From assembly GCA_947650005.1 (NCBI GenBank), contig CANSTU010000023.1, positions 1 to 41,453 of the forward strand: a DNA stretch of 41,453 nt, in the 5' to 3' direction. The number at the start of each line of letters is the position of its first letter. Within the stretch, counting starts at the first letter, position 1. Shown in pieces: positions 2,903 through 38,590 of the stretch. The notes beneath the pieces were generated by a model. That model saw nothing but the letters and a program-made list of their open reading frames with translations. It was not told the DNA's origin and ran no database searches. Position numbers and translations under genes: made by a program. The DNA is from an uncultured Lachnospiraceae bacterium. Lineage in GTDB: Bacteria; Bacillota; Clostridia; Lachnospirales; Lachnospiraceae.

Positions 2903-2942
2903 GCAATCTTCTTCCTTTCTGTTCTCAATCTTTCTCCTATCC

Positions 2943-3062
2943 ACGCAGTTTAGCGCACATGCAAATCAAGGAGGCTAAAAATATTAATTTTAATCTGATA
3001 CCTATCTGCAGGCAGGGCACGCCCTCAAATTCAATTTGAATCGTAGTTTCAATCTTTACCAA
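2943..3062 (-). repeat. Dispersed SD-hairpin repeat, locus 2 (degenerate)
   Basis: Reading the plus strand, CTCC is followed by a weak GCAG-TTTA-GCGC hairpin, then AAATCA, the AT-rich palindromic stretch AAAATATTAATTTTAA, a second GC hairpin and CAAATTCAATTTGAATC. The order is that of the better-preserved copies. It fills most of the gap between the response regulator and kinase copy 2, in the orientation expected for a minus-strand gene. Confidence 0.5.
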
Positions 3063-9771: not shown

Positions 9772-9801
9772 TTCTTTTAGAAGCTACCTTTTGTATTCTG
9801 T

Positions 9802-9872
9802 CCGGGTGGTTTTGGCTTTGCAGGAGAAGGCGGGAGCATGCCCCTTTCTCCTGCAAAGCCAAAATCGCCCGG
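9802..9872. repeat. Long hairpin without U-tract, 27-base arms
   Basis: Arms 9802-9828 and 9846-9872 pair over 27 positions. The two non-Watson-Crick positions are both G-U pairs in plus-strand RNA. The core GGCTTTGCAGGAGAA recurs rearranged in the hairpin at 15341. No T run follows on either strand, so this is not a standard terminator. Confidence 0.85.
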
Positions 9873-9901
9873 GCGGAATGGGTCAGGCAACGCTTTCATC
9901 T

Positions 9902-9987
9902 ATACCCTCGCTGGACAAGGGGATACACGCCGCCAGTTGCCAAAATACGGCACTTGGGGCATGTATCCCCTTGTGCAGCGAGGGTAT
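9902..9987. repeat. Long hairpin without U-tract, ~38-base arms
   Basis: Arms 9902-9939 and 9950-9987, with uninterrupted blocks ATACCCTCGCTG and ACAAGGGGATACA on each side and few mismatches. It follows directly after the 9802 hairpin and lacks a T run. Confidence 0.85.
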
Positions 9988-10431: not shown

Positions 10432-10505
10432 AAGTTAACGTATAAAATGGCTCTACAGCCATTTTTATCCGTGGATTTACGCCCGCTGAAGCGGGCAGGA
10501 AGGTT
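10432..10505 (+). repeat. Dispersed SD-hairpin repeat, locus 3
   Basis: Two hairpins in tandem: AAAATGGCT...AGCCATTTTT, then GCCCGCTGAAGCGGGC, followed by AGGAAGG. The reverse complement matches the tandem units at 16.0-16.2 kb, including CACGG and ATGGCTGTA. It is inverted relative to the other copies because the gene served (10515) is on the plus strand. Confidence 0.85.
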
Positions 10506-10518
10506 ATTACATTTATGA
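10447..10518 (+). CDS. Possible leader ORF inside the repeat, coupled to the DUF362 gene
   Basis: An ATG in the first hairpin of the repeat opens a 23-codon frame starting MALQPFLSVDL. Its TGA (10516-10518) overlaps the ATG of the next gene (10515), a classic coupling overlap. Units at 16.0 kb encode the similar start MSLQPFFN. There is no good Shine-Dalgarno before this ATG, so translation is uncertain. Confidence 0.3.
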   Translation: MALQPFLSVDLRPLKRAGRLLHL

Positions 10519-11381: not shown

Positions 11382-11400
11382 TTCGGACACCCGAAAGATA

Positions 11401-11452
11401 AAAAACCATGCCTTTTTCCCATAAAACCTGATTGGGGAAAGGCATGGTTTTT
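11401..11452 (+). terminator. Rho-independent terminator after the DUF362 gene
   Basis: AAAAACCATGCCTTT and AAAGGCATGGTTTTT form a stem of about 18 pairs around a 13-base loop, ending in TTTTT. The A run on the left means it may also work on the other strand. Confidence 0.85.
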
Positions 11453-13728: not shown

Positions 13729-14049
13729 AGAGGTTCGACGCCCGACAAGCCAGATGGTCCAGCCCCTCGGCATCGCCCTGGCTACAGGTGAAGGCGGCAT
13801 GTCCTGCTGCGATGGGGAAGGGGGCAAGTCTGTTTTCGAACGCCTTTCATGCCATGAAGATGAGACCTGCTTCCCAGGAGGGACGCACCCCGACTGGGAA
13901 GCGTCCAGGGCTCATCGGAATGTCTGGCATGAGTGCGTTCGAAAACAGACTTGCCCCCTTCCCCATCGCAGCAGGACATGCCGCCTTCACCTGTAGCCAG
14001 GGCGATGCCGAGGGGCTGGACCATCTGGCTTGTCGGGCGTCGAACCTCT
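13729..14049. repeat. Giant palindrome: perfect 115-bp arms, 91-bp loop
   Basis: Bases 13729-13843 are the exact reverse complement of 13935-14049. The loop continues the symmetry imperfectly: TCATGCCA against TGGCATGA, GATGAG against CTCATC, GCTTCCCAG against CTGGGAAGC. GC-rich blocks just outside (GGCCGCC, 13709-13715 and 14052-14058) also mirror each other. It fills the space between two convergent genes. There is no T run for a normal terminator. The open frames inside it are near mirror images on the two strands and therefore not evidence of protein. Confidence 0.95.
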
Positions 14050-16021: not shown

Positions 16022-16255
16022 AAATTCACGGTTGAAAAATGGCTGTAAAGACATTTTTCAATCTAACCCTCCTTGCCTGCTTCAGCAGGCATACATTCAT
16101 GGTTGAAAAATGGCTGTAAAGACATTTTTCAATCTAACCTCTTTGCCTGCTTCAGCAGGCATACATTCACGGTTGAAAAATGGCTGTAAAGACATTTTTC
16201 AATCTAACCTCCTTGCCTGCTTCAGCAGGCATACAAATCAGGGTAATTTAGAATT
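16022..16255 (-). repeat. Dispersed SD-hairpin repeat, locus 5: three tandem 70-71-base units plus remnant
   Basis: Units start at GGTTGAAAAATGGCTG (16030, 16101, 16171), so the period is 71 then 70. Each contains a stem TTGAAAAATG/CATTTTTCAA and the perfect hairpin TGCCTGCTTCAGCAGGCA. Units differ at only a few positions, so the amplification is recent. Read on the minus strand, each unit carries AAGGAGG (or AAAGAGG) about 12 bases before an ATG followed by the codons for SLQPFFN. The last remnant runs into the stop of the DMT gene. Confidence 0.95.
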
Positions 16256-17164
16256 TCAATTTTCACTCTTTTTTCCTGAAGGAAGCTGCACCAGGATAAC
16301 CGCTGTAAATACCAACGCGCAGCCCGCAAGTTCTCTGGGCGAAAGAGATTGTCCCAGTAAGACCCAACCAGCCAGCACGGAAATCACGGACTCCAGGCTG
16401 AGAATCAGAGAAGCCACCGTGGGATCCATATCCCTCTGGCCGATGATCTGCAGCGTATAGGCCACACCGCAGGACATCACACCCGCATAGAGCAGGGGAA
16501 CGATCCCTGCAAGCAGGGCGCTCCAGGAAGGCGTCTCCAGCAAAAATGCCCCGGCCATACACAGGACCCCGGATACATAAAACTGGATGCAAGATAGCTT
16601 CACCCCATCCGCTTTTGGTGAAAAATAATCTACCACCAGGATATGGATGGAAAAAAGGATCGCGCAGAAAAATACCAGCACATCCCCCCGATTCATACGA
16701 AAGCTTCCTCCCACACACAGAAGGTACATCCCTATGGCCGCAAGGAACGCACCGATCCATACAATTTTACGCACTTTTTTCCGAAAAAAAAGTCCCAGGA
16801 TGGGAACGATGACAATGTACAGCGTTGTGATGAATCCCGCCTTTCCCACGGAGGTATACTGGATCCCTAACTGCTGCAGCATACTGGCAGAGCACAGGGC
16901 CAGGCCGCAGCAAAGCCCGCCGATTAGCGTCACACGCCTTTCTGCCTTCGTCTTTTCCGGGTTCTCCGGTTCCTCCTGCGGCCCCCGCTTTCTTTCCCGA
17001 TAGGCGATCAACGGCAGCAGAACGGTTCCGCCGATCAGGCTGCGCGCGCCGTTAAAGGTAAACGGTCCCATATAATCCATGCCCACACTCTGGGCCACAA
17101 ACGCCACACCCCAGATAAAAGCTGCCAGAAACAAGAGCAAACTCCCCCGATAATTCTTTCTCAT
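16256..17164 (-). CDS. DMT-family transporter (EamA, RhaT-like)
   Basis: About 302 residues with ten hydrophobic segments in two five-helix EamA repeats. The first starts RGSLLLFLAAFIWGVAFVAQ and contains FNGARSLIGG. The second contains CGVAYTLQIIGQ and ASLILSLESVISVLAGWV, which is typical. These are inner-membrane exporters or importers of metabolites; the substrate is unknown. The ATG at 17164 lies six bases from GGGAG, which is the end of the upstream repeat. Its stop codon TGA lies in the border of the next repeat array, so repeats touch both ends of the gene. Confidence 0.9.
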   Translation of the reverse strand: MRKNYRGSLLLFLAAFIWGVAFVAQSVGMDYMGPFTFNGARSLIGGTVLLPLIAYRERKRGPQEEPENPEKTKAERRVTLIGGLCCGLALCSASMLQQLGIQYTSVGKAGFITTLYIVIVPILGLFFRKKVRKIVWIGAFLAAIGMYLLCVGGSFRMNRGDVLVFFCAILFSIHILVVDYFSPKADGVKLSCIQFYVSGVLCMAGAFLLETPSWSALLAGIVPLLYAGVMSCGVAYTLQIIGQRDMDPTVASLILSLESVISVLAGWVLLGQSLSPRELAGCALVFTAVILVQLPSGKKSEN

Positions 17165-17165
17165 T

Positions 17166-17392
17166 TTTAGCTCCCATCTGCGCGCTTTAGCACGCACTCA
17201 AATCAATGAGTTTGAAGGGCCCCTCTTTCCAACCCGTTTCCGCCTGCGCACCTTCACGCGCATATGAATCGAAGAGATTGAACTATGCTTCTTTCAAACT
17301 CATATTTTGTTCCCATCTGCCCGCTTTAGCAGGCAGACAAATCAGGAAGATTGAAAATTTTAATTTTCAATCTAATTCCCCTACCTATCATA
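17166..17392 (-). repeat. Dispersed SD-hairpin repeat, locus 6: three diverged units
   Basis: GC hairpins GCGCGCTTTAGCACGC (about 17180), GCGCACCTTCACGCGC (about 17246) and GCCCGCTTTAGCAGGC (about 17319) alternate with T-rich stems; the last is AGATTGAAAA/TTTTCAATCT. Two hairpins are bounded by CTCCCATCTGC or TCCCATCTGC, the complement of GCAGATGGGA(G). The proximal one supplies the ribosome site of the DMT gene. The middle part contains GGGA, seven bases, ATG and a six-residue frame MSLKEA. Confidence 0.9.
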
Positions 17393-17410
17393 TCATGGGG
17401 TTTGCTTACA

Positions 17411-17932
17411 TTACTGCATCCTAAGACGCTTATCGATCTCTTCCACCACGCTGCGCAGCCCCTTTTCTTCACAGTCAACGGTCAAGTCCCCATACTTTTC
17501 ATAAAGGGGAACCCGCTCCGCATACAGCTCCGCCAGCGTCTGTCCCTCCTTCAGCGCCACTCCGCGCTTTTTCAGGTCCCCCAACCGATCCGCGATTCCT
17601 TCACAGGAGAGTTTCAGATAAACCACCCTGCCGATCCCCTTCAGATGCTCCATAGCTTCCGTACCATAGACAACGCTTCCGCCCGTGGCAATGACGCTGT
17701 GGTGTGCCTGAATATTTCGGTTCACGTCGTTTTCCACTTTTATGAAACCGGAAAGCCCTTCCGAAGATATGATTTCATGGAGAAGCTTTCCCGTCTCCTC
17801 CTGAATGATCAAGTCTGAATCCAGGAAACGATATCCCATTTTCTTGGCCAATACCACCCCCACTGTGCTTTTCCCCACGCCGGGCATGCCGATCAAAATG
17901 ATATTGTCTTTTTTCTCCGCATTCTCTCTCAT
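17411..17932 (-). CDS. aroK: Shikimate kinase
   Basis: 173 residues. P-loop ILIGMPGVGKST at about 12-23, shikimate-binding Asp/Arg region FLDSDLIIQEETG, second glycine motif VIATGGSVVYG and the lid region LYAERVPLYEKY. It phosphorylates the 3-hydroxyl of shikimate in aromatic amino acid synthesis. The conserved motif SEG in place of the usual EG-x-x-F-R (ISSEGLSGFIKVENDV) lacks the arginine normally seen after the Phe, as some clostridial AroK-like proteins do. The ATG at 17932 has GGGAG five bases upstream from the repeat. No other shikimate-pathway gene is nearby. Confidence 0.88.
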   Translation of the reverse strand: MRENAEKKDNIILIGMPGVGKSTVGVVLAKKMGYRFLDSDLIIQEETGKLLHEIISSEGLSGFIKVENDVNRNIQAHHSVIATGGSVVYGTEAMEHLKGIGRVVYLKLSCEGIADRLGDLKKRGVALKEGQTLAELYAERVPLYEKYGDLTVDCEEKGLRSVVEEIDKRLRMQ

Positions 17933-17936
17933 TTGT

Positions 17937-18075
17937 GCTCCCATTTGCGCTCCTTGGCGTACATACAAATCAGGGTGATCCCATCTGCGTGCAAGGCACG
18001 CACTCAAACCGGGGTGATTGAAAGCGCCTTTCTCTCACCCCGCCTCCATCCTGCGCACTTTAGCGCGAATCCAAA
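17937..18075 (-). repeat. Dispersed SD-hairpin repeat, locus 7: three units
   Basis: CTCCCATTTGCGCTCC...GGCG, then CCCATCTGCGTGCAAGGCACGCA, then CATCCTGCGCACTTTAGCGCG, separated by AAATCA and a GGGGTGA/TCACCCC stem. The proximal GGGAG is the ribosome site of aroK. Confidence 0.85.
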
Positions 18076-18111
18076 CAAAAAGGCTTTGCGCCGCTATACA
18101 GCACAAAGCCC
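18076..18111 (-). terminator. Rho-independent terminator of ridA
   Basis: Minus strand GGCTTTGTGC/GCGCAAAGCC stem with a loop of about 9 bases and a following TTTTTG run. It begins 10 bases after the ridA stop. Confidence 0.85.
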
Positions 18112-21711: not shown

Positions 21712-21798
21712 CTAGTATCAATCAAGGAGCCCGGAGAACGCCATATTTATCGCTCTCCGGGCATAATAAAAAGCGGATAGCGGGAATTGGATCCGCCG
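21712..21798 (-). repeat. Distal copy of the tRNA-Gly flank (att-like direct repeat)
   Basis: Closely matches 24490-24572: CTAGTATCAA, the hairpin CCCGGAGA...TCTCCGGG (21729-21762), and then a stretch of 37 bases with one mismatch ending in the tRNA 3' portion GATAGCGGGAAT. After that the match to the tRNA decays. This is what an attachment-site remnant looks like. Confidence 0.75.
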
Positions 21799-24489: not shown

Positions 24490-24572
24490 CTAGTATCAAA
24501 GAACCCGGAGAGCGCCCTATTTGCCGCTCTCCGGGCATAATAAAAAGCAGATAGCGGGAATCGAACCCGTCT
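24490..24572 (-). repeat. tRNA-proximal copy of the att-like direct repeat
   Basis: CTAGTATCAA, hairpin CCCGGAGAGCG/CGCTCTCCGGG (24504-24535, likely the tRNA terminator), then the 3' end of tRNA-Gly. Direct repeat of 21712-21798; the two copies bracket about 2.7 kb of AT-rich mobile DNA. Confidence 0.75.
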
Positions 24573-24616
24573 CTCCAGCTTGGGAAGCTAGCGTTCTACC
24601 GATGAACTATATCTGC
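24546..24616 (-). tRNA. tRNA-Gly (anticodon CCC)
   Basis: Folds as a standard cloverleaf: acceptor GCAGATA/TATCTGC, D-stem GTTC/GAAC, anticodon stem CTAGC/GCTGG with loop TTCCCAA (anticodon CCC), T-arm CGGG-TTCGATT-CCCG, discriminator T, no encoded CCA. One A-C mismatch closes the T-stem. tRNA genes are classic integration sites, and the 3' end is duplicated 2.75 kb away. Confidence 0.95.
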
Positions 24617-25092: not shown

Positions 25093-27459
25093 TCAGCTCT
25101 TTTCTTCCCTTCCCATACACAGCCAGGCCAGCGTTTCATACGAAGCCTCTCCAGCCTCTTGAATCCGTTCAACCCCAAGCCCTTTTAAACAGGCCGTAGT
25201 CTTTGGCCCAATGCTGTAAAAACAACCTTTTCTTATCCATTCTTCTCGGTTTACGCACGCATTTAGCAGGCGGGATGCGGCGGACGCGCTGGTGCACAGG
25301 ATTCCATCATAGTCGTCCACCTTCCGATCTTCCATACCATCCGGGTTCACAGCCCGGTTTGCATAAACCGCCAGTTCTTCAAAGGAACAGACTCCCCCGA
25401 GTCTCTCCTTCAAATGGCAGTCCGCATTCTCCGCCTTCAGGTACAATACCCTCTGCGTCTTGCTTAGAACATCTGCTAGCGCGTCCGCCAGCGCATCGCT
25501 GTTCCATTTTTCCGGAATCAGATCCGCAAAAAGCCCATGGGACCGCAGGCATTCTGCGCTTCTTCCTCCGATCGACGCGATCCGGCAGCCCGCCAAGCTC
25601 CTCAGATCCAGCCCTGAGGAAGCTAGGTTTCTTAAAAACCCTTCCACACCATTTTGGCTGGTGAAAATCAGCCAGTCAGTTTCCTGCAGCCTTTCTATGG
25701 GAAGTTCCACCCTTTTGTATTCAATATCGCCTACCGGAAGCACATCCGCAGCCGCTCCCTGTTCCTGCAAAAGCTCTGCCAGCTCCATCGCCCTCCTGCC
25801 GATCCCCGGAATCAAATACCTCCTGCCGGCCAAGGGCTTTGTTTCATAAAAATTCAACTTTTCCCGGAAAGCAACCACATCGCCCACGACGATCAGGGCA
25901 GGCGATTCTAAACCGGCACGTCTCGTTTCTTCTTCCAGCCGAACCAAAGGGGCGCTCACCGTCCTTTGCTTTGGAGTCGTAGCTTTAGAAATGACAGCCG
26001 CAGGCGTTTCTGGCTCCATTCCCGCATCCAAAAGCCCTCGGGTGATCTCGTCCAGCTTTTCCAAGCCCATAAGAAAAATACAGGTTTCCTTTCCCCGGGC
26101 CATGGTCACAAAATCGATTTCAGCCAGCTTATCCCTGCGGTCGTGGGCGGTCACCACATGAAAACCTGTGGCGATTCCCCGATGGGTAATGGGAATCCCT
26201 GCATAGGCAGGCCCCGCGGTACAAGAGCTAATGCCAGGAATGACTTCAAAGGCAATCCCTTGTTCTGCCAAAGCCAAGCCTTCTTCGCCTCCCCGTCCAA
26301 ATACATAAGCATCCCCGCCCTTCAGCCGCACCACCGTTTCATATTCCAAGCTCTTTTGGATGAGAAGGGCATTGATTTCTTCCTGCTTCATCGTATGGAA
26401 ACGGTTGGCTTTTCCCACATAGATGCGCTCGCAGCCCTCCTTCGCCTCTTCCAGAAGCGCCGGTGAGGAGAGGCGGTCATATACGATACAGTCTGCGCTT
26501 CGGATCGCCTTCAGCCCCTTGACCGTGATTAGCCCCGGATCTCCCGGACCACCGCCCACCAGGTATACCTTTCCCGCCAGCTCCCGCCGAATCTTTTCAG
26601 CCGCTTCCTCGGCCAGCTGTCCCGGATCCCTGCCGCATACTTGCGAAAAAGCAAGTCTGTCACTGTCTTTCTTTCCGAATACGGCACGCAGCATGAGCCT
26701 CCCGTCCGGCATCCGGCTGCAGACTGCACCGATGGGAATATGACAGTCCCCTCCAATTCTCTGAAGGAATCCGCGCTCCGCCTCCACCGCAGCTTCCGTC
26801 TCCCCATGGCTGAGCGCATTCAACATGCGGCTCGTTACCTCATCCCCTTCCCGGATCTCAAGCGCTAGCACGCCCTGGGCCGGAGCGGGAATCATCTGAT
26901 CCGGTTCCAGATATTCCGTGATCCTTTCTGCCATTCCCAATCGATGAAGTCCTGCTGCCGCCAGCACAAGCCCGTCCAGCTTAAGTTCCTCCATCTTCCG
27001 CAGACGGGTATCCACATTTCCCCGGATCCCCACCACCTTCAAATCGGGACGCAAACGTTTCAGCTGAAGTTCCCTGCGCCTGCTCCCCGTCCCGATTACG
27101 GCGCCGTAAGGCAGCTCCCGCAAGGCCTTCTTTTCCCTCAGGATCAACACGTCTCTGGGATCTTCCCGCTTCCAGGCGTGGACAAATGCCAGCCCAGGTG
27201 CAGGCTGCGCAGGCATATCCTTCATGCTATGCACGCCCATATCCACTTTCCCGGCCAAGATCTGCTCTTCAATCTCTTTTACAAATACCCCCTTATCCCC
27301 GATCTGATCCAACGGCCGATCCTGCACCGCATCCCCTTTTGTCCTTATGATACGGATTTCATAGTCATTTTCCGGGTAAGCCTCTTTCAGCCTGTCGCAG
27401 ACATAGGAAGCCTGCGCCAAAGCCAGCTTAGATCCCCGTGTGCCGATCACATATTTCAT
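25093..27459 (-). CDS. Trifunctional HemC-CobA-HemD fusion (porphobilinogen deaminase, SUMT, uroporphyrinogen-III synthase)
   Basis: 788 residues, three consecutive enzymes of siroheme synthesis. HemC (1 to ~295): IGTRGSKLALAQ, IGDKGVFVKEIE, GVHSMKDMP and the cofactor-binding Cys239 in GGDCHIPIGA. CobA/SUMT (~296-540): VYLVGGGPGDPGLITVKG, RLKGGDAYVFGRGGEE, GIPITHRG. HemD (~541-788): YLIPGIGRRAMELAELL and DWLIFTSQNGVEGFL, a domain that is always weakly conserved. Together they turn porphobilinogen into precorrin-2. The ATG at 27459 has CGGGAG seven bases upstream, contributed by the repeat. hemA lies 96 bases upstream on the same strand, with the repeat filling the gap. CobA-HemD fusions are common in clostridia; adding HemC in one chain is less usual. 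Confidence 0.93.
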   Translation of the reverse strand: MKYVIGTRGSKLALAQASYVCDRLKEAYPENDYEIRIIRTKGDAVQDRPLDQIGDKGVFVKEIEEQILAGKVDMGVHSMKDMPAQPAPGLAFVHAWKREDPRDVLILREKKALRELPYGAVIGTGSRRRELQLKRLRPDLKVVGIRGNVDTRLRKMEELKLDGLVLAAAGLHRLGMAERITEYLEPDQMIPAPAQGVLALEIREGDEVTSRMLNALSHGETEAAVEAERGFLQRIGGDCHIPIGAVCSRMPDGRLMLRAVFGKKDSDRLAFSQVCGRDPGQLAEEAAEKIRRELAGKVYLVGGGPGDPGLITVKGLKAIRSADCIVYDRLSSPALLEEAKEGCERIYVGKANRFHTMKQEEINALLIQKSLEYETVVRLKGGDAYVFGRGGEEGLALAEQGIAFEVIPGISSCTAGPAYAGIPITHRGIATGFHVVTAHDRRDKLAEIDFVTMARGKETCIFLMGLEKLDEITRGLLDAGMEPETPAAVISKATTPKQRTVSAPLVRLEEETRRAGLESPALIVVGDVVAFREKLNFYETKPLAGRRYLIPGIGRRAMELAELLQEQGAAADVLPVGDIEYKRVELPIERLQETDWLIFTSQNGVEGFLRNLASSGLDLRSLAGCRIASIGGRSAECLRSHGLFADLIPEKWNSDALADALADVLSKTQRVLYLKAENADCHLKERLGGVCSFEELAVYANRAVNPDGMEDRKVDDYDGILCTSASAASRLLNACVNREEWIRKGCFYSIGPKTTACLKGLGVERIQEAGEASYETLAWLCMGREEKS

Positions 27460-27464
27460 ACGCA

Positions 27465-27556
27465 ACTCCCGCCTGCCCGCTTTAGCGGGCATTCAAATCA
27501 AGACTGTGAAATCGCTGATTTCACATTTACTCCCATCGCCCGCCTAGCAGGCATTC
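27465..27556 (-). repeat. Dispersed SD-hairpin repeat, locus 8: two units
   Basis: GCCCGCTTTAGCGGGC and GCCCGCCTAGCAGGC, each preceded on the plus strand by CTCCC and followed by ATTCAAATC; between them the stem TGTGAAATC/GATTTCACA. It spans the whole hemA-hemC gap: its ATTTGA border forms the hemA stop codon and its GGGAG is the ribosome site of the hemC fusion. Confidence 0.9.
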
Positions 27557-28781
27557 AAATCCGAAACAGCTCCCCCACCATCCGTTTATATTCTTCCTGC
27601 TTCTGCTGCGAATCAATCTGTTTCAATTCCTGAATCGGCTCACGCAGGAGTCTCTGCAAGGACGCGTTTAAAACTTTTTTTAGAAGTTTCTGTTCCCTGG
27701 GGCTCAGCTCCATCTTTCGATCCAGGTAAGCATAACTATCTTCCACGATACGGCAGCATCGGGCCTGTAGGGATTCGATGGTGGAATCCATGCGGCTTCG
27801 CAGCAGCCATGCAGAAGTTTCCTTTAGATCCTCCCCGATCAACCTGCGGCTTTCTTCCACAAGCCGTTCCCGCTCCCGTTTGTTCTCCTCCACGATTCTC
27901 TGCAGGCTATCCAGATTGATCAGGTTTACCAATCGCTCCTCTGCTAAAGTGATATCCACATCCCGGGGCGTCGCCAGATCCAGGAAAGTGACTGGGCGCA
28001 CAGGAGAAAAGTCCTCCTGGCGTACCACCAAATGCGGGGAGGCGGTGGCTGAAACCACAATGTCGCAGCCTTCCATCACTTCATAACGGCGCTCAAAAGC
28101 CACCACCCCAATTTCCGGAAATGTTTCCCTCAATTTTTTTGCATGGGTATGGTTCCTGCTGCACGCCGTTATCCGCACCTCTTTATATTCAAACAGATAT
28201 TTCAACGCCAGCATCGCCGTATGCCCGCTGCCAATGACCAGAATCCGTTTTCCCGCAATCCCGCACTCCTCTTCCAATCTCTTTATCCCTACATAGCTAA
28301 CTGAAAGCGGCCTTTCACTGATCTTCAGTTCAGTTTTGACCCGTTTGGCGCAGGTGATTGCGTCACGCACCACACGGTTCATTTCCTTCTTACTATATCC
28401 CATGGTTCTGGCATAGTCCAGAGCTTCCTTGACCTGTCCGAGGATCTGATCCTCTCCCAGCACCAGCGATTCCAGCCCGGCGGCAATCCGAAACAGATAG
28501 GCGATGGCCTCTTCTCCCCGCAATTCAAACAGGTACTCCCCCAGTCCCACTTTCGGAAACATTCCCGTATAGGCCTCCCGCATCCCGATAGCCTGTGCCT
28601 CCTCTTCATAGAAAAAATAGACCTCGCTTCGGTTGCAAGTGGACAGTACCATACACTGCTCTATGCCCTGTTTTTCCGCTCTGTGAAAAAAATCCAATTT
28701 CATTCCATCTGTAAACGAAGTTTTGTCCCGGATATCCAGCTGCGCCTTTTTATAATTGACTCCAATTAAACCAAACTGCAT
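27555..28781 (-). CDS. hemA: Glutamyl-tRNA reductase
   Basis: 408 residues. Catalytic cysteine in MVLSTCNRSEVYFF, VLGEDQILGQVKEAL, the NADPH site ILVIGSGHTAMLALKYL, and a C-terminal dimerisation region. It reduces Glu-tRNA to glutamate-1-semialdehyde, the first step of the C5 route to tetrapyrroles. It heads a two-gene unit with the hemC-cobA-hemD fusion. A terminator for the preceding transporter gene lies upstream, so a separate promoter is expected in 28782-28918. The stop codon is inside the repeat border. Confidence 0.95.
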   Translation of the reverse strand: MQFGLIGVNYKKAQLDIRDKTSFTDGMKLDFFHRAEKQGIEQCMVLSTCNRSEVYFFYEEEAQAIGMREAYTGMFPKVGLGEYLFELRGEEAIAYLFRIAAGLESLVLGEDQILGQVKEALDYARTMGYSKKEMNRVVRDAITCAKRVKTELKISERPLSVSYVGIKRLEEECGIAGKRILVIGSGHTAMLALKYLFEYKEVRITACSRNHTHAKKLRETFPEIGVVAFERRYEVMEGCDIVVSATASPHLVVRQEDFSPVRPVTFLDLATPRDVDITLAEERLVNLINLDSLQRIVEENKRERERLVEESRRLIGEDLKETSAWLLRSRMDSTIESLQARCCRIVEDSYAYLDRKMELSPREQKLLKKVLNASLQRLLREPIQELKQIDSQQKQEEYKRMVGELFRI

Positions 28782-31044: not shown

Positions 31045-31094
31045 GTTTATTTTCTCCTTTTCTTTTGTTTTCATGTATATGTTCGTTCCCTTTG

Positions 31095-31135
31095 CCTATT
31101 GCAGGCTTTTCCTGCGATACTGCCGCCAAAGGGGA
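31095..31135 (-). repeat. Weak copy of the dispersed repeat, locus 9 (CAGGC variant)
   Basis: CTATTGCAGGCTTTTCCTGC then GATACTGCCGCCAA resembles the variant at 38526. It lies in the 129-base gap between two sulfur genes; the ribosome site of the downstream gene is not part of it. Confidence 0.35.
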
Positions 31136-38518: not shown

Positions 38519-38590
38519 ACCCCTGCATATCGCAGGCTATGCCTGCGACACTGCCATCAATAAAGAGTTTGAAACGTAGTTTCAAACTTA
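38519..38590 (-). repeat. Dispersed repeat, locus 11 (CAGGC variant, no adjacent gene)
   Basis: CCCCTGCATATCGCAGGCTATGCCTGCG followed by the perfect hairpin AGTTTGAAAC-GTA-GTTTCAAACT. It is the inverted counterpart of the copy at 11485. GGGG is followed by seven bases and ATG on the minus strand, but the frame stops after four codons, so the original gene may have been lost. Confidence 0.75.

What the first reader, a model, noticed from the sequence alone, without database searches (positions are those of the whole stretch)
16022..18075. A dispersed two-hairpin repeat that supplies the ribosome-binding site of the gene behind it
At about ten intergenic loci (1, 2943, 10432, 11485, 16022, 17166, 17937, 27465, 35690, 38519; a weak one at 31095) the same composite recurs. 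In gene sense it is a T/A-rich stem (ATTGAAAA/TTTTCAAT type), GATTTGAAT, a GC stem (GCCTGCTAAAGCGGGC type), then CAGATGGGAG or CAGGAAGG. Wherever a gene follows within the window, the repeat sits just upstream in the same orientation, and it flips for plus-strand genes. In at least five cases (DMT transporter, aroK, hemC fusion, DUF362, hybrid kinase) the terminal G-rich box is the only Shine-Dalgarno, 5-11 bases before the ATG. REP/BIME repeats usually lie at 3' ends; an element that carries the start signal would be a different kind of element: a translational control module, a mobile 'RBS donor', or both. Stem bases vary in a compensating way (GCGCGC..., GCCCGC..., GCACGC...), which argues for selection on structure.
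Basis: partly seen in the sequence, partly recalled or inferred. Interest (0 to 1): 0.88.

Follow-up and report, generated by a model that had tools for sequence, protein, structure and literature searches.

The report
Mobile repeat that replaces ribosome-binding sites
Some gut bacteria carry short DNA repeats that settle between a gene's ribosome-binding site and its start codon and bring a replacement binding site with them, so the spread of a repeat appears to have swapped the translation start signal of many genes.

Summary
A GATTTG-NNATG / GC-hairpin / GGGAG unit (often behind an A+T-rich hairpin, often in tandem) occurs 226 times in 1.24 Mb of this genome, about 650 per genome by extrapolation. 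Of 155 loci, 147 face a gene on the same strand and 109 have the start codon 9-22 nt behind the hairpin; 1 of 155 does when the strand is flipped. Stem bases covary. The unit is patchy in the family (12 of 250 genomes).

A sister species (84-85% nucleotide identity) gives filled and empty sites. In the clearest pairs the repeat sits between the native Shine-Dalgarno (SD) and the start codon: the native SD stays upstream as a relic and the repeat ends in the new SD. At the one locus tested, 12 other genomes of the genus lack the unit at that start, so it is a gain. First units often have an SD-like box at their left edge.

Best reading: a small mobile repeat that inserts at SDs and replaces them. 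The enzyme is unknown, a selective filter is not excluded, and no effect on translation was measured.

The parts
16022..16243 (-). tandem array, three full units (16201-16243, 16131-16172, 16061-16102) plus a partial one; variant with TTGAAAAATGNC..GCCATTTTTCAA hairpin and tail AAGGAGGTTA; runs into the start of a YgjP-like gene (start 16054 or 16021, to 15410)
   Evidence: gene by Pfam PF01863
17348..17373 (-). A+T-rich hairpin AGATTGAAAATT/AATTTTCAATCT, first unit of the 17166-17373 array
   Evidence: 12-nt perfect inverted repeat
17305..17347 (-). unit: TCCTGATTTGTCT-GCCTGC TAAA GCGGGC-AGATGGGAAC
   Evidence: R1 49.3 bits
17232..17274 (-). degenerate unit
   Evidence: R1 36.5 bits
17166..17208 (-). 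last unit; SD GGGAG (17171-17175), then ATG 17162-17164 of the EamA/DMT transporter (gene to 16256)
18039..18080 (-). unit, first of the aroK-side array
   Evidence: R1 32.9 bits
17976..18014 (-). unit, 3-nt-loop variant (GCGTGC CTT GCACGC)
   Evidence: R1 19.3 bits, E 0.61; not carried into the 226
17933..17975 (-). last unit; GGGAG, then ATG 17932 of shikimate kinase (17411-17932)
   Evidence: R1 41.6 bits; SKI domain; start
27461..27503 (-). unit; GCGGGAG, then ATG 27459 of the hemC-cobA-hemD fusion (25093-27459)
   Evidence: R1 51.5 bits; Pfam; start
27525..27565 (-). preceding unit of the same array, overlapping the 3' end of the glutamyl-tRNA reductase gene (27555-28781)
   Evidence: R1 20.2 bits, E 0.38, (not carried into the 226); Pfam
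10469..10510 (+). unit on the + strand; AGGAAGG, then ATG 10515 of the DUF362 gene
   Evidence: R1 40.5 bits
35752..35793 (-). unit with tail ATGGAGG; called start codon 189 nt away
   Evidence: R1 41.2 bits
35824..35880 (-). unit by eye (GATTTG TGTACC GCCTGC AGAA GCAGGC)
2929..2971 (-). degenerate unit upstream of a GHKL sensor gene (ATG 2902, to 1649)
   Evidence: R1 25.3 bits
11500..11542 (+). second hairpin-SD family (TTACAGGC ATA GCCTGTGATATGCAGGGGG), directly before ATG 11543 of the hybrid histidine kinase
   Evidence: sequence; Pfam
38519..38588 (-). second family (GGCAGTGTCGCAGGC..GCCTGCGATATGCAGGGG) with an A+T hairpin upstream
31075..31130 (-). second family, weak copy
   Evidence: sequence, by eye

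Best explanation
A short (about 41-70 bp) palindromic repeat of Lachnospiraceae inserts, in sense orientation, just 3' of a gene's Shine-Dalgarno. Its right end is itself an SD (GATGGGAG or GGAGG/AAGG variants), followed by the start codon, in the clearest pairs with the native spacer kept. Each insertion therefore leaves the native SD upstream as a relic and takes over translation initiation. Because the new SD is again a target, further insertions or slippage build head-to-tail arrays. SHOWN: placement, orientation, covarying hairpin, an SD-like box at the left edge of many first units, filled/empty sites, gain at one locus, recurrence in other genera. INFERRED: that the SD-like box is the recognised target rather than the survivor of selection; that movement is by a recombinase or transposase acting in trans on the hairpin with a GGAG-like core; and that ribosomes use the new SD, with an altered yield.
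For: 226 copies (E<=0.11; 258 at E<=1) in 1,241,453 bases. 155 loci: next gene same strand 147; start codon 9-22 nt after the hairpin 109 (73 at 13-14 nt; 99 ATG); flipped strand 1 of 155; random positions 74 of 3,100. Stem pairs: 92.9% of cells paired against 83.6% shuffled; 104 cells changed on both sides against a shuffled mean of 44. Left edge of first units: SD-like 9-mer (dG<=-4) in 47 of 81, against 7-17 of 81 at offsets -10 to -60. Filled/empty pairs with G002: L083:9069 CAGAGGAGAAAACT-ATG empty, with the insert after CAGAGGAGAAAA; L086:19374 GGAG|GAAGGATG empty, filled CGGAG|insert..GGGAG|GAAGGATG; also L080:14357, L080:19645, L078:17818, L086:13127, L080:17844. L086 orthologue: of 13 genus genomes only G002 has the unit at this start. 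Other genera: 16 of 24 loci with a start 9-22 nt after, mirrored 1 of 24. By eye, two inserts at SD-like purines inside coding DNA: L173:11400 and L058:19180.
Against: No enzyme found: Y1_Tnp 0 in G000 and G002; RVT_1 0 in G000 and G122 but 3 in G002; IS110 0 in G000, G002 and G122; other recombinases not tested. 46 of 155 loci do not have a start codon at 9-22 nt. By my reading 7 of 13 G000 loci and 10 of 19 G002 loci with both flanks matched have a unit at the same start in the other species, so about half the sites are shared: old insertions or retention. Three of 20 aligned pairs (L064:16887, L078:8442, L081:15898) carry other inserts upstream of a kept native SD, and L076:18748 does too. 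In Parablautia (G288) only 4 of 10 loci abut a start; in the pattern loci 19 of 44, mirrored 3 of 44. Gene starts come from my own simple gene finder, which misplaced some. Polarity was tested at one locus. No expression data.
Confidence: 0.75

Rival explanations
1. Random insertion plus selection: the repeat lands anywhere, but copies survive mainly where their terminal SD keeps the downstream gene translated.
For: The repeat ends in an SD at the right spacing, so such insertions would be tolerated; about half the compared sites are shared by the two species (my reading), which fits retention; selection cannot be watched directly here.
Against: Neutral places should hold copies in both orientations, yet only 4 of 155 loci face a gene on the opposite strand and 3 lie inside genes. 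The left flank is SD-like in 47 of 81. Two inserts in coding DNA also sit at SD-like purines (by eye).
Confidence: 0.2
2. No enzyme: ectopic recombination or template switching between SD microhomologies (GGAG..NTGAAA) copies SD-to-SD blocks from gene to gene.
For: SD at both ends; 92 of 221 G000 units carry NTGAAA or NTGAGA in the left arm, 76 of these 92 with an SD 4-14 nt upstream against 19 of 92 control windows; other hairpin modules share the habit in part; none of three transposase/RT families is in G000.
Against: 4-6 nt of microhomology is very short for hundreds of events; a conserved hairpin with compensatory changes suggests that the hairpin itself is recognised.
Confidence: 0.2
3. 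Host regulatory leader: a translational control RNA (SD occlusion, or a coupled mini-ORF) kept at chosen genes; spread is incidental.
For: The GGG of the SD is paired in the MFE of 3 of 6 folds, in 1 by the unit's own upstream CCC. About half the compared sites are shared with the sister species. In G122 several units read as an open frame ending over the start codon (by eye).
Against: Downstream genes in the window are unrelated. By my reading 6 of 13 and 9 of 19 compared sites have the unit in one species only. The mini-ORF is open to the tail in only 23 of 92 G000 units.
Confidence: 0.15
4. IS200/IS605-type MITE or REP (RAYT-mobilised), with an SD-like target tetranucleotide.
For: Hairpin, fixed orientation and a target retained at the left edge are like single-strand transposons (recalled knowledge).
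Against: No Y1_Tnp match in G000, G002 or G122, although G161 (13 matches) and G288 (2) have it. REPs lie mainly 3' of genes (abstract of PMC3733652).
Confidence: 0.1
5. Artefact of assembly or gene calling.
For: G000 and G002 are draft assemblies.
Against: Same geometry in records titled Parablautia intestinalis, Robinsoniella peoriensis and Anaerocolumna aminovalerica strains. In the aligned pairs similarity between species resumes at or next to the start codon.
Confidence: 0.02

Closest known systems
REP/BIME repeats and their RAYT transposases (PMC3733652, passages incl. abstract)
   Same: short interspersed palindromes in high copy, patchy among relatives
   Different: REPs are reported predominantly downstream of coding regions; GTAG REPs go with RAYT (IS200/IS605-type) transposases, whose domain was not found in G000 or G002; this unit lies 5' of genes in one orientation and carries the SD
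MITEs / small mobile sequences such as RUP and NEMIS (PMC2229807, passages)
   Same: non-autonomous repeats that are transcribed with neighbouring genes and form RNA structures
   Different: the text of that review has 0 hits for ribosome binding, Shine-Dalgarno, start codon or initiation codon; clear terminal inverted repeats at both ends were not seen here
TAACTGA direct repeats of marine Beggiatoaceae (PMC4679880, passages)
   Same: repeats stacked directly before start codons, mostly in one orientation, genome-wide, patchy between lineages
   Different: 7-mers with little SD character (about 10% of such intergenic regions also have an SD); here the repeat brings the SD and filled/empty sites are seen
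Engineered multiple-RBS leaders in Bacillus (PMC9723656, abstract and section list)
   Same: several SDs in a row before one gene
   Different: synthetic; here natural arrays made by repeats
Riboswitches and structured leaders (Rfam 15; PMC11109978 passages)
   Same: RNA hairpin next to the SD
   Different: no Rfam family reaches its gathering score at the repeat; unrelated genes; mobile

Membership tests
REP/BIME | small palindrome in high copy, mostly between genes | tested here: met
REP/BIME | predominantly 3' of genes | tested here: not met
   147 of 155 loci face the 5' end of a same-strand gene
REP/BIME | RAYT / Y1_Tnp in the genome | tested here: not met
   0 in G000 and in G002, both drafts of 96-98% completeness
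REP/BIME | GTAG or CGTC tag at one end of the hairpin | tested here: not met
   the logo of 153 copies shows variable GWRT (GTAT in part) before the stem and AGATGGGAG after it
MITE | terminal inverted repeats | tested here: inconclusive
   the A+T hairpin is a 12-nt inverted repeat at the left end, but no partner at the right end was seen; present before 81 of 150 first units
MITE | target-site duplication | tested here: inconclusive
   GGAG-like on both sides in the clearest pairs, but the right copy follows the repeat's own consensus, so it may belong to the repeat
MITE | filled and empty sites between relatives | tested here: met
MITE | related autonomous transposon | tested here: inconclusive
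   three transposase/RT families tested: none in G000; others not tested
Riboswitch / known RNA family | match to a curated model at its gathering score | tested here: not met
   only a tRNA in the window
TAACTGA-type start-codon repeats | heptamer, little SD character | tested here: not met
   43-nt hairpin unit with GGGAG
Integron attC | integrase and attC boxes | not tested
   no search made

The most novel reading that the evidence does not exclude
A class of mobile DNA whose target is the translation start signal: hairpin cassettes that recombine SD-to-SD (a GGAG-like core on both sides) through a dedicated but unidentified enzyme. In some Lachnospiraceae they have given roughly a tenth of all genes a standard replacement ribosome-binding site. 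Several unrelated hairpin modules use the same route.
Probability: 0.4. Interest if true: 0.93.

Novelty: new variant of a known kind. Interest (0 to 1): 0.85.

Why it matters
Mobile repeats usually disturb genes from outside. One that homes on, or survives only at, the SD-start gap and brings the replacement SD would move translation initiation signals between genes and could reset protein output of hundreds of genes in one lineage. Sister species offer ready-made natural pairs (same gene, same start codon, with and without the repeat) to measure this. It also raises the question of how DNA can be inserted at so short and weak a motif as an SD. The nine literature searches made (open-licence PMC papers only) listed no paper whose title or shown abstract describes such an element; that is a limited search.

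Tried and rejected
Rfam families: none at the repeat. The GATTTG word alone is chance-level in the window. RAYT/IS200, IS110 and reverse transcriptase: no match in G000; G002 has 3 reverse transcriptase matches, G288 has 2, so that family is not excluded for them. Coupled mini-ORF as a general rule: open to the tail in 23 of 92 G000 units against 24 of 184 in the other two frames, 11 of 41 against 9 of 82 in G002, 8 of 15 against 7 of 30 elsewhere: a weak excess only. SD occlusion: SD bases paired in 3 of 6 folds, in 1 by the unit's own CCC; fold z-scores -3.8 to -0.5. Viral contigs: 0 matches. The 3' end of 16S rRNA was sought to check the anti-SD: no exact match in G000, so a standard anti-SD is assumed. 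The L187 gene as a polarity test failed, because the family has too many paralogues. Sister G009: one marginal copy in 353 kb and few flanks in common. A first pattern for the own genome was too strict (0 matches).

Rows dropped: the 32 weakest of 258 matches (E>0.11); 6 of 80; 1 of 25; 2 of 56; 5 of 155 first units (too near an end); the logo uses 153 of 223 copies (30 bits or more). 20 of the 44 clean indels were aligned, chosen because they lie near a start codon; 13 of those 20 went into. Two of the 44 (L083:4148 and L083:4213) are one site counted twice. L086:19374 and L058:19180 were labelled 'inside' by the gene finder, and L083:7515 was labelled '5prime_start' although by eye its insert is gene sequence. 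In one search the two groups overlap: L132 and L148 are the same DNA as G288 stretches, and L139 is nearly the same DNA as a G002 stretch.
Full report
WHAT WAS CHECKED. I built a covariance model (R1: 43 positions, 7 base pairs) from 11 window copies. To get a count that does not depend on hits I took 60 stretches of 20 kb chosen by contig number and searched them with the window: 258 matches at E<=1 in 1,241,453 bases. I carried 226 (E<=0.11) forward. Scaled to 3.59 Mb this is about 650 copies.

ANATOMY. Consensus in gene sense: [optional A+T hairpin, e.g. AGATTGAAAATT-AA-AATTTTCAATCT] CCCTGATTTGNATGCCCGC-TAAA-GCGGGCAGATGGGAGCAAA, then ATG. The stem covaries: pair 18-32 is C-G in 83 and G-C in 54 sequences, pair 19-31 is C-G in 87 and U-A in 43; 92.9% of cells pair against 83.6% in shuffles, and the slid controls pair 18-67%. 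The alignment was fitted to the model, which favours the structure, and holds the 150 best of the 258 matches. Copies form 155 loci: 113 single and 42 arrays of 2-6; 64 of 71 array spacings are 61-71 nt. Variants differ in the A+T hairpin and tail (AAGGAGGTTA, GGAAGGTTA, GGGAGTTA). Other hairpin modules with SD-like ends are interleaved. In G000 strict motifs of four of them have a start codon within 14 nt in 3 of 14, 2 of 8, 6 of 15 and 7 of 10 cases; in G002 in 5 of 11, 5 of 7, 9 of 20 and 5 of 8; mirrored controls 0 in all eight. The window sites 11485, 38519 and 31095 belong to one of these.

POSITION. With my own gene finder (1,111 genes, 86% coding): next gene on the same strand 147 of 155, opposite 4, inside genes 3, edge 1. 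Start codon 9-22 nt after the hairpin: 109 of 155, of which 73 at 13 or 14 nt; 99 ATG, 7 TTG, 3 GTG. Flipped-strand control 1 of 155; random positions 74 of 3,100. 109 such starts against 1,111 called genes is about a tenth.

LEFT EDGE. For first units with a recognisable A+T hairpin (81 of 150), the 9-mer just before it pairs with the anti-SD at dG<=-4 in 47 of 81 cases (offset -2), against 7-17 of 81 at offsets -10 to -60. Many units thus begin behind an SD and end with one. 92 of 221 G000 units have NTGAAA or NTGAGA in the left arm; 76 of these 92 have an SD 4-14 nt before it, against 19 of 92 control windows.

FILLED AND EMPTY SITES. G002 (same genus; its contig lengths equal those of Lachnospiraceae bacterium S29_Bin8) is 83.5% identical over 104 kb in a first comparison and 85.2% over 226 kb with both sets of stretches, matches of 72% or less left out. 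Synteny with G000 gave 159 adjacent match pairs and 44 clean indels of at least 30 nt. By the gene finder 25 of the 44 have a start codon within -12..40 nt, 12 are elsewhere between genes, 7 inside genes; 545 of 2,516 random noncoding positions fit the first class. I aligned 20 of the 44, chosen near a start. In the clearest cases the native SD stays at the left, the unit follows, and its own SD is followed by the native spacer: L086:19374 (empty GGATTGGAGGAAGGATG; filled CGGAG-unit-GGGAG-GAAGGATG), L083:9069 (empty CAGAGGAGAAAACTATG; filled CAGAGGAGAAAA-units-GGGGGTATAGCTATG), L080:14357, L080:19645, L078:17818, L086:13127; L080:17844 and L083:18607 are filled in G002. By my reading the start codon is the same in 17 of 20, another codon at the same place in 1, and differs in 2. 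Against: L064:16887, L078:8442 and L081:15898 have other inserts upstream of a kept SD, and L076:18748 also. An earlier pass matched both flanks of 13 of 155 G000 loci and 19 of 57 G002 loci: by my reading 7 of 13 and 10 of 19 have a unit at the same start in the other species, often with another number of units, and 6 and 9 do not. One G002 unit adds 66 nt in frame inside a CAAX-protease-like gene at a purine-rich CAGGGCGGAA (L173:11400; gene name by eye).

POLARITY. For the L086:19374 gene, relatives were found in 13 of 13 genus genomes. Only G002 shows the unit at this start; the other 12 show none in the 150 nt printed, and a model search of the 13 loci finds it there only in G002 (other matches lie elsewhere in the loci: one strong and one weak in G000, one weak each in G011, G003 and G007). 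This locus is a gain in G002. The one other locus tried gave paralogues.

DISTRIBUTION. A strict pattern over 84,980 species genomes gave 69 stretches whose titles are Lachnospiraceae, genera or species that I place there, or (two) only Bacillota; viral contigs 0. That the window's own family is Lachnospiraceae is inferred from these titles. Three of those pattern stretches repeat DNA of the other sets.

MECHANISM. SD on both sides, fixed orientation, arrays and insert-at-SD all follow from one rule: the unit enters just 3' of an SD and ends in an SD. Whether that reflects recognition of the SD, recombination at a GGAG core, or survival only there is not settled. The rarity of copies facing opposite-strand genes and the two inserts in coding DNA argue for targeting; the shared half of the sites fits age or retention as well. 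No Y1 transposase, IS110 transposase or reverse transcriptase domain was found in G000; other recombinases were not tested. Over 13 pairs the SD:anti-SD energy goes from a mean of -9.5 (empty) to -7.2 kcal/mol (filled), weaker in 8 and stronger in 5 (Wilcoxon p 0.033). Insertion thus tends to swap a strong native SD for a medium standard one. Effects on translation are unmeasured.

KNOWN KINDS. REPs lie mainly 3' of genes and GTAG REPs go with RAYTs (PMC3733652, passages). A review of small mobile sequences has no hit for ribosome binding or Shine-Dalgarno (PMC2229807, passages). TAACTGA repeats sit before start codons in Beggiatoaceae but mostly lack an SD (PMC4679880, passages). I therefore file this as a new variant of small palindromic mobile repeats, with the stronger reading given in the section on the most novel reading.

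Noticed in passing
window 13729-14049: A long perfect hairpin (115-nt arms, 91 nt between) with core GATGAGACCTGCTTCCC..GGGAAGC..CAGGGCTCATC is one of 16 copies of that core in 1.24 Mb of G000 and 0 in the G002 and G009 stretches; of the 14 printed, at least four lie within 60 bases of a contig end, so it probably breaks the assembly. A second, larger dispersed hairpin family.
   Followed up: partly
window 21721-21795 and 24495-24616: The 3' part of the tRNA-Gly(CCC) gene and the terminator-like hairpin behind it are repeated 2.8 kb away without the rest of a tRNA; it may mark the two ends of something inserted at the tRNA.
   Followed up: no
L173 about 11400-11442 (G002): A repeat unit lies in frame inside a CAAX-protease-like gene and adds 66 nt (22 codons, counted by hand) compared with the G000 relative (gene name by eye).
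   Followed up: no
L220-L225 (G122): In several copies the stretch from the left-arm ATG/GTG reads as an open frame of about 21 codons whose stop overlaps the downstream ATG (by eye), which looks like translational coupling.
   Followed up: partly
window 9795-9879 and 9902-9987: Two further long imperfect hairpins (39 and 36 nt arms) side by side upstream of 10142.
   Followed up: no
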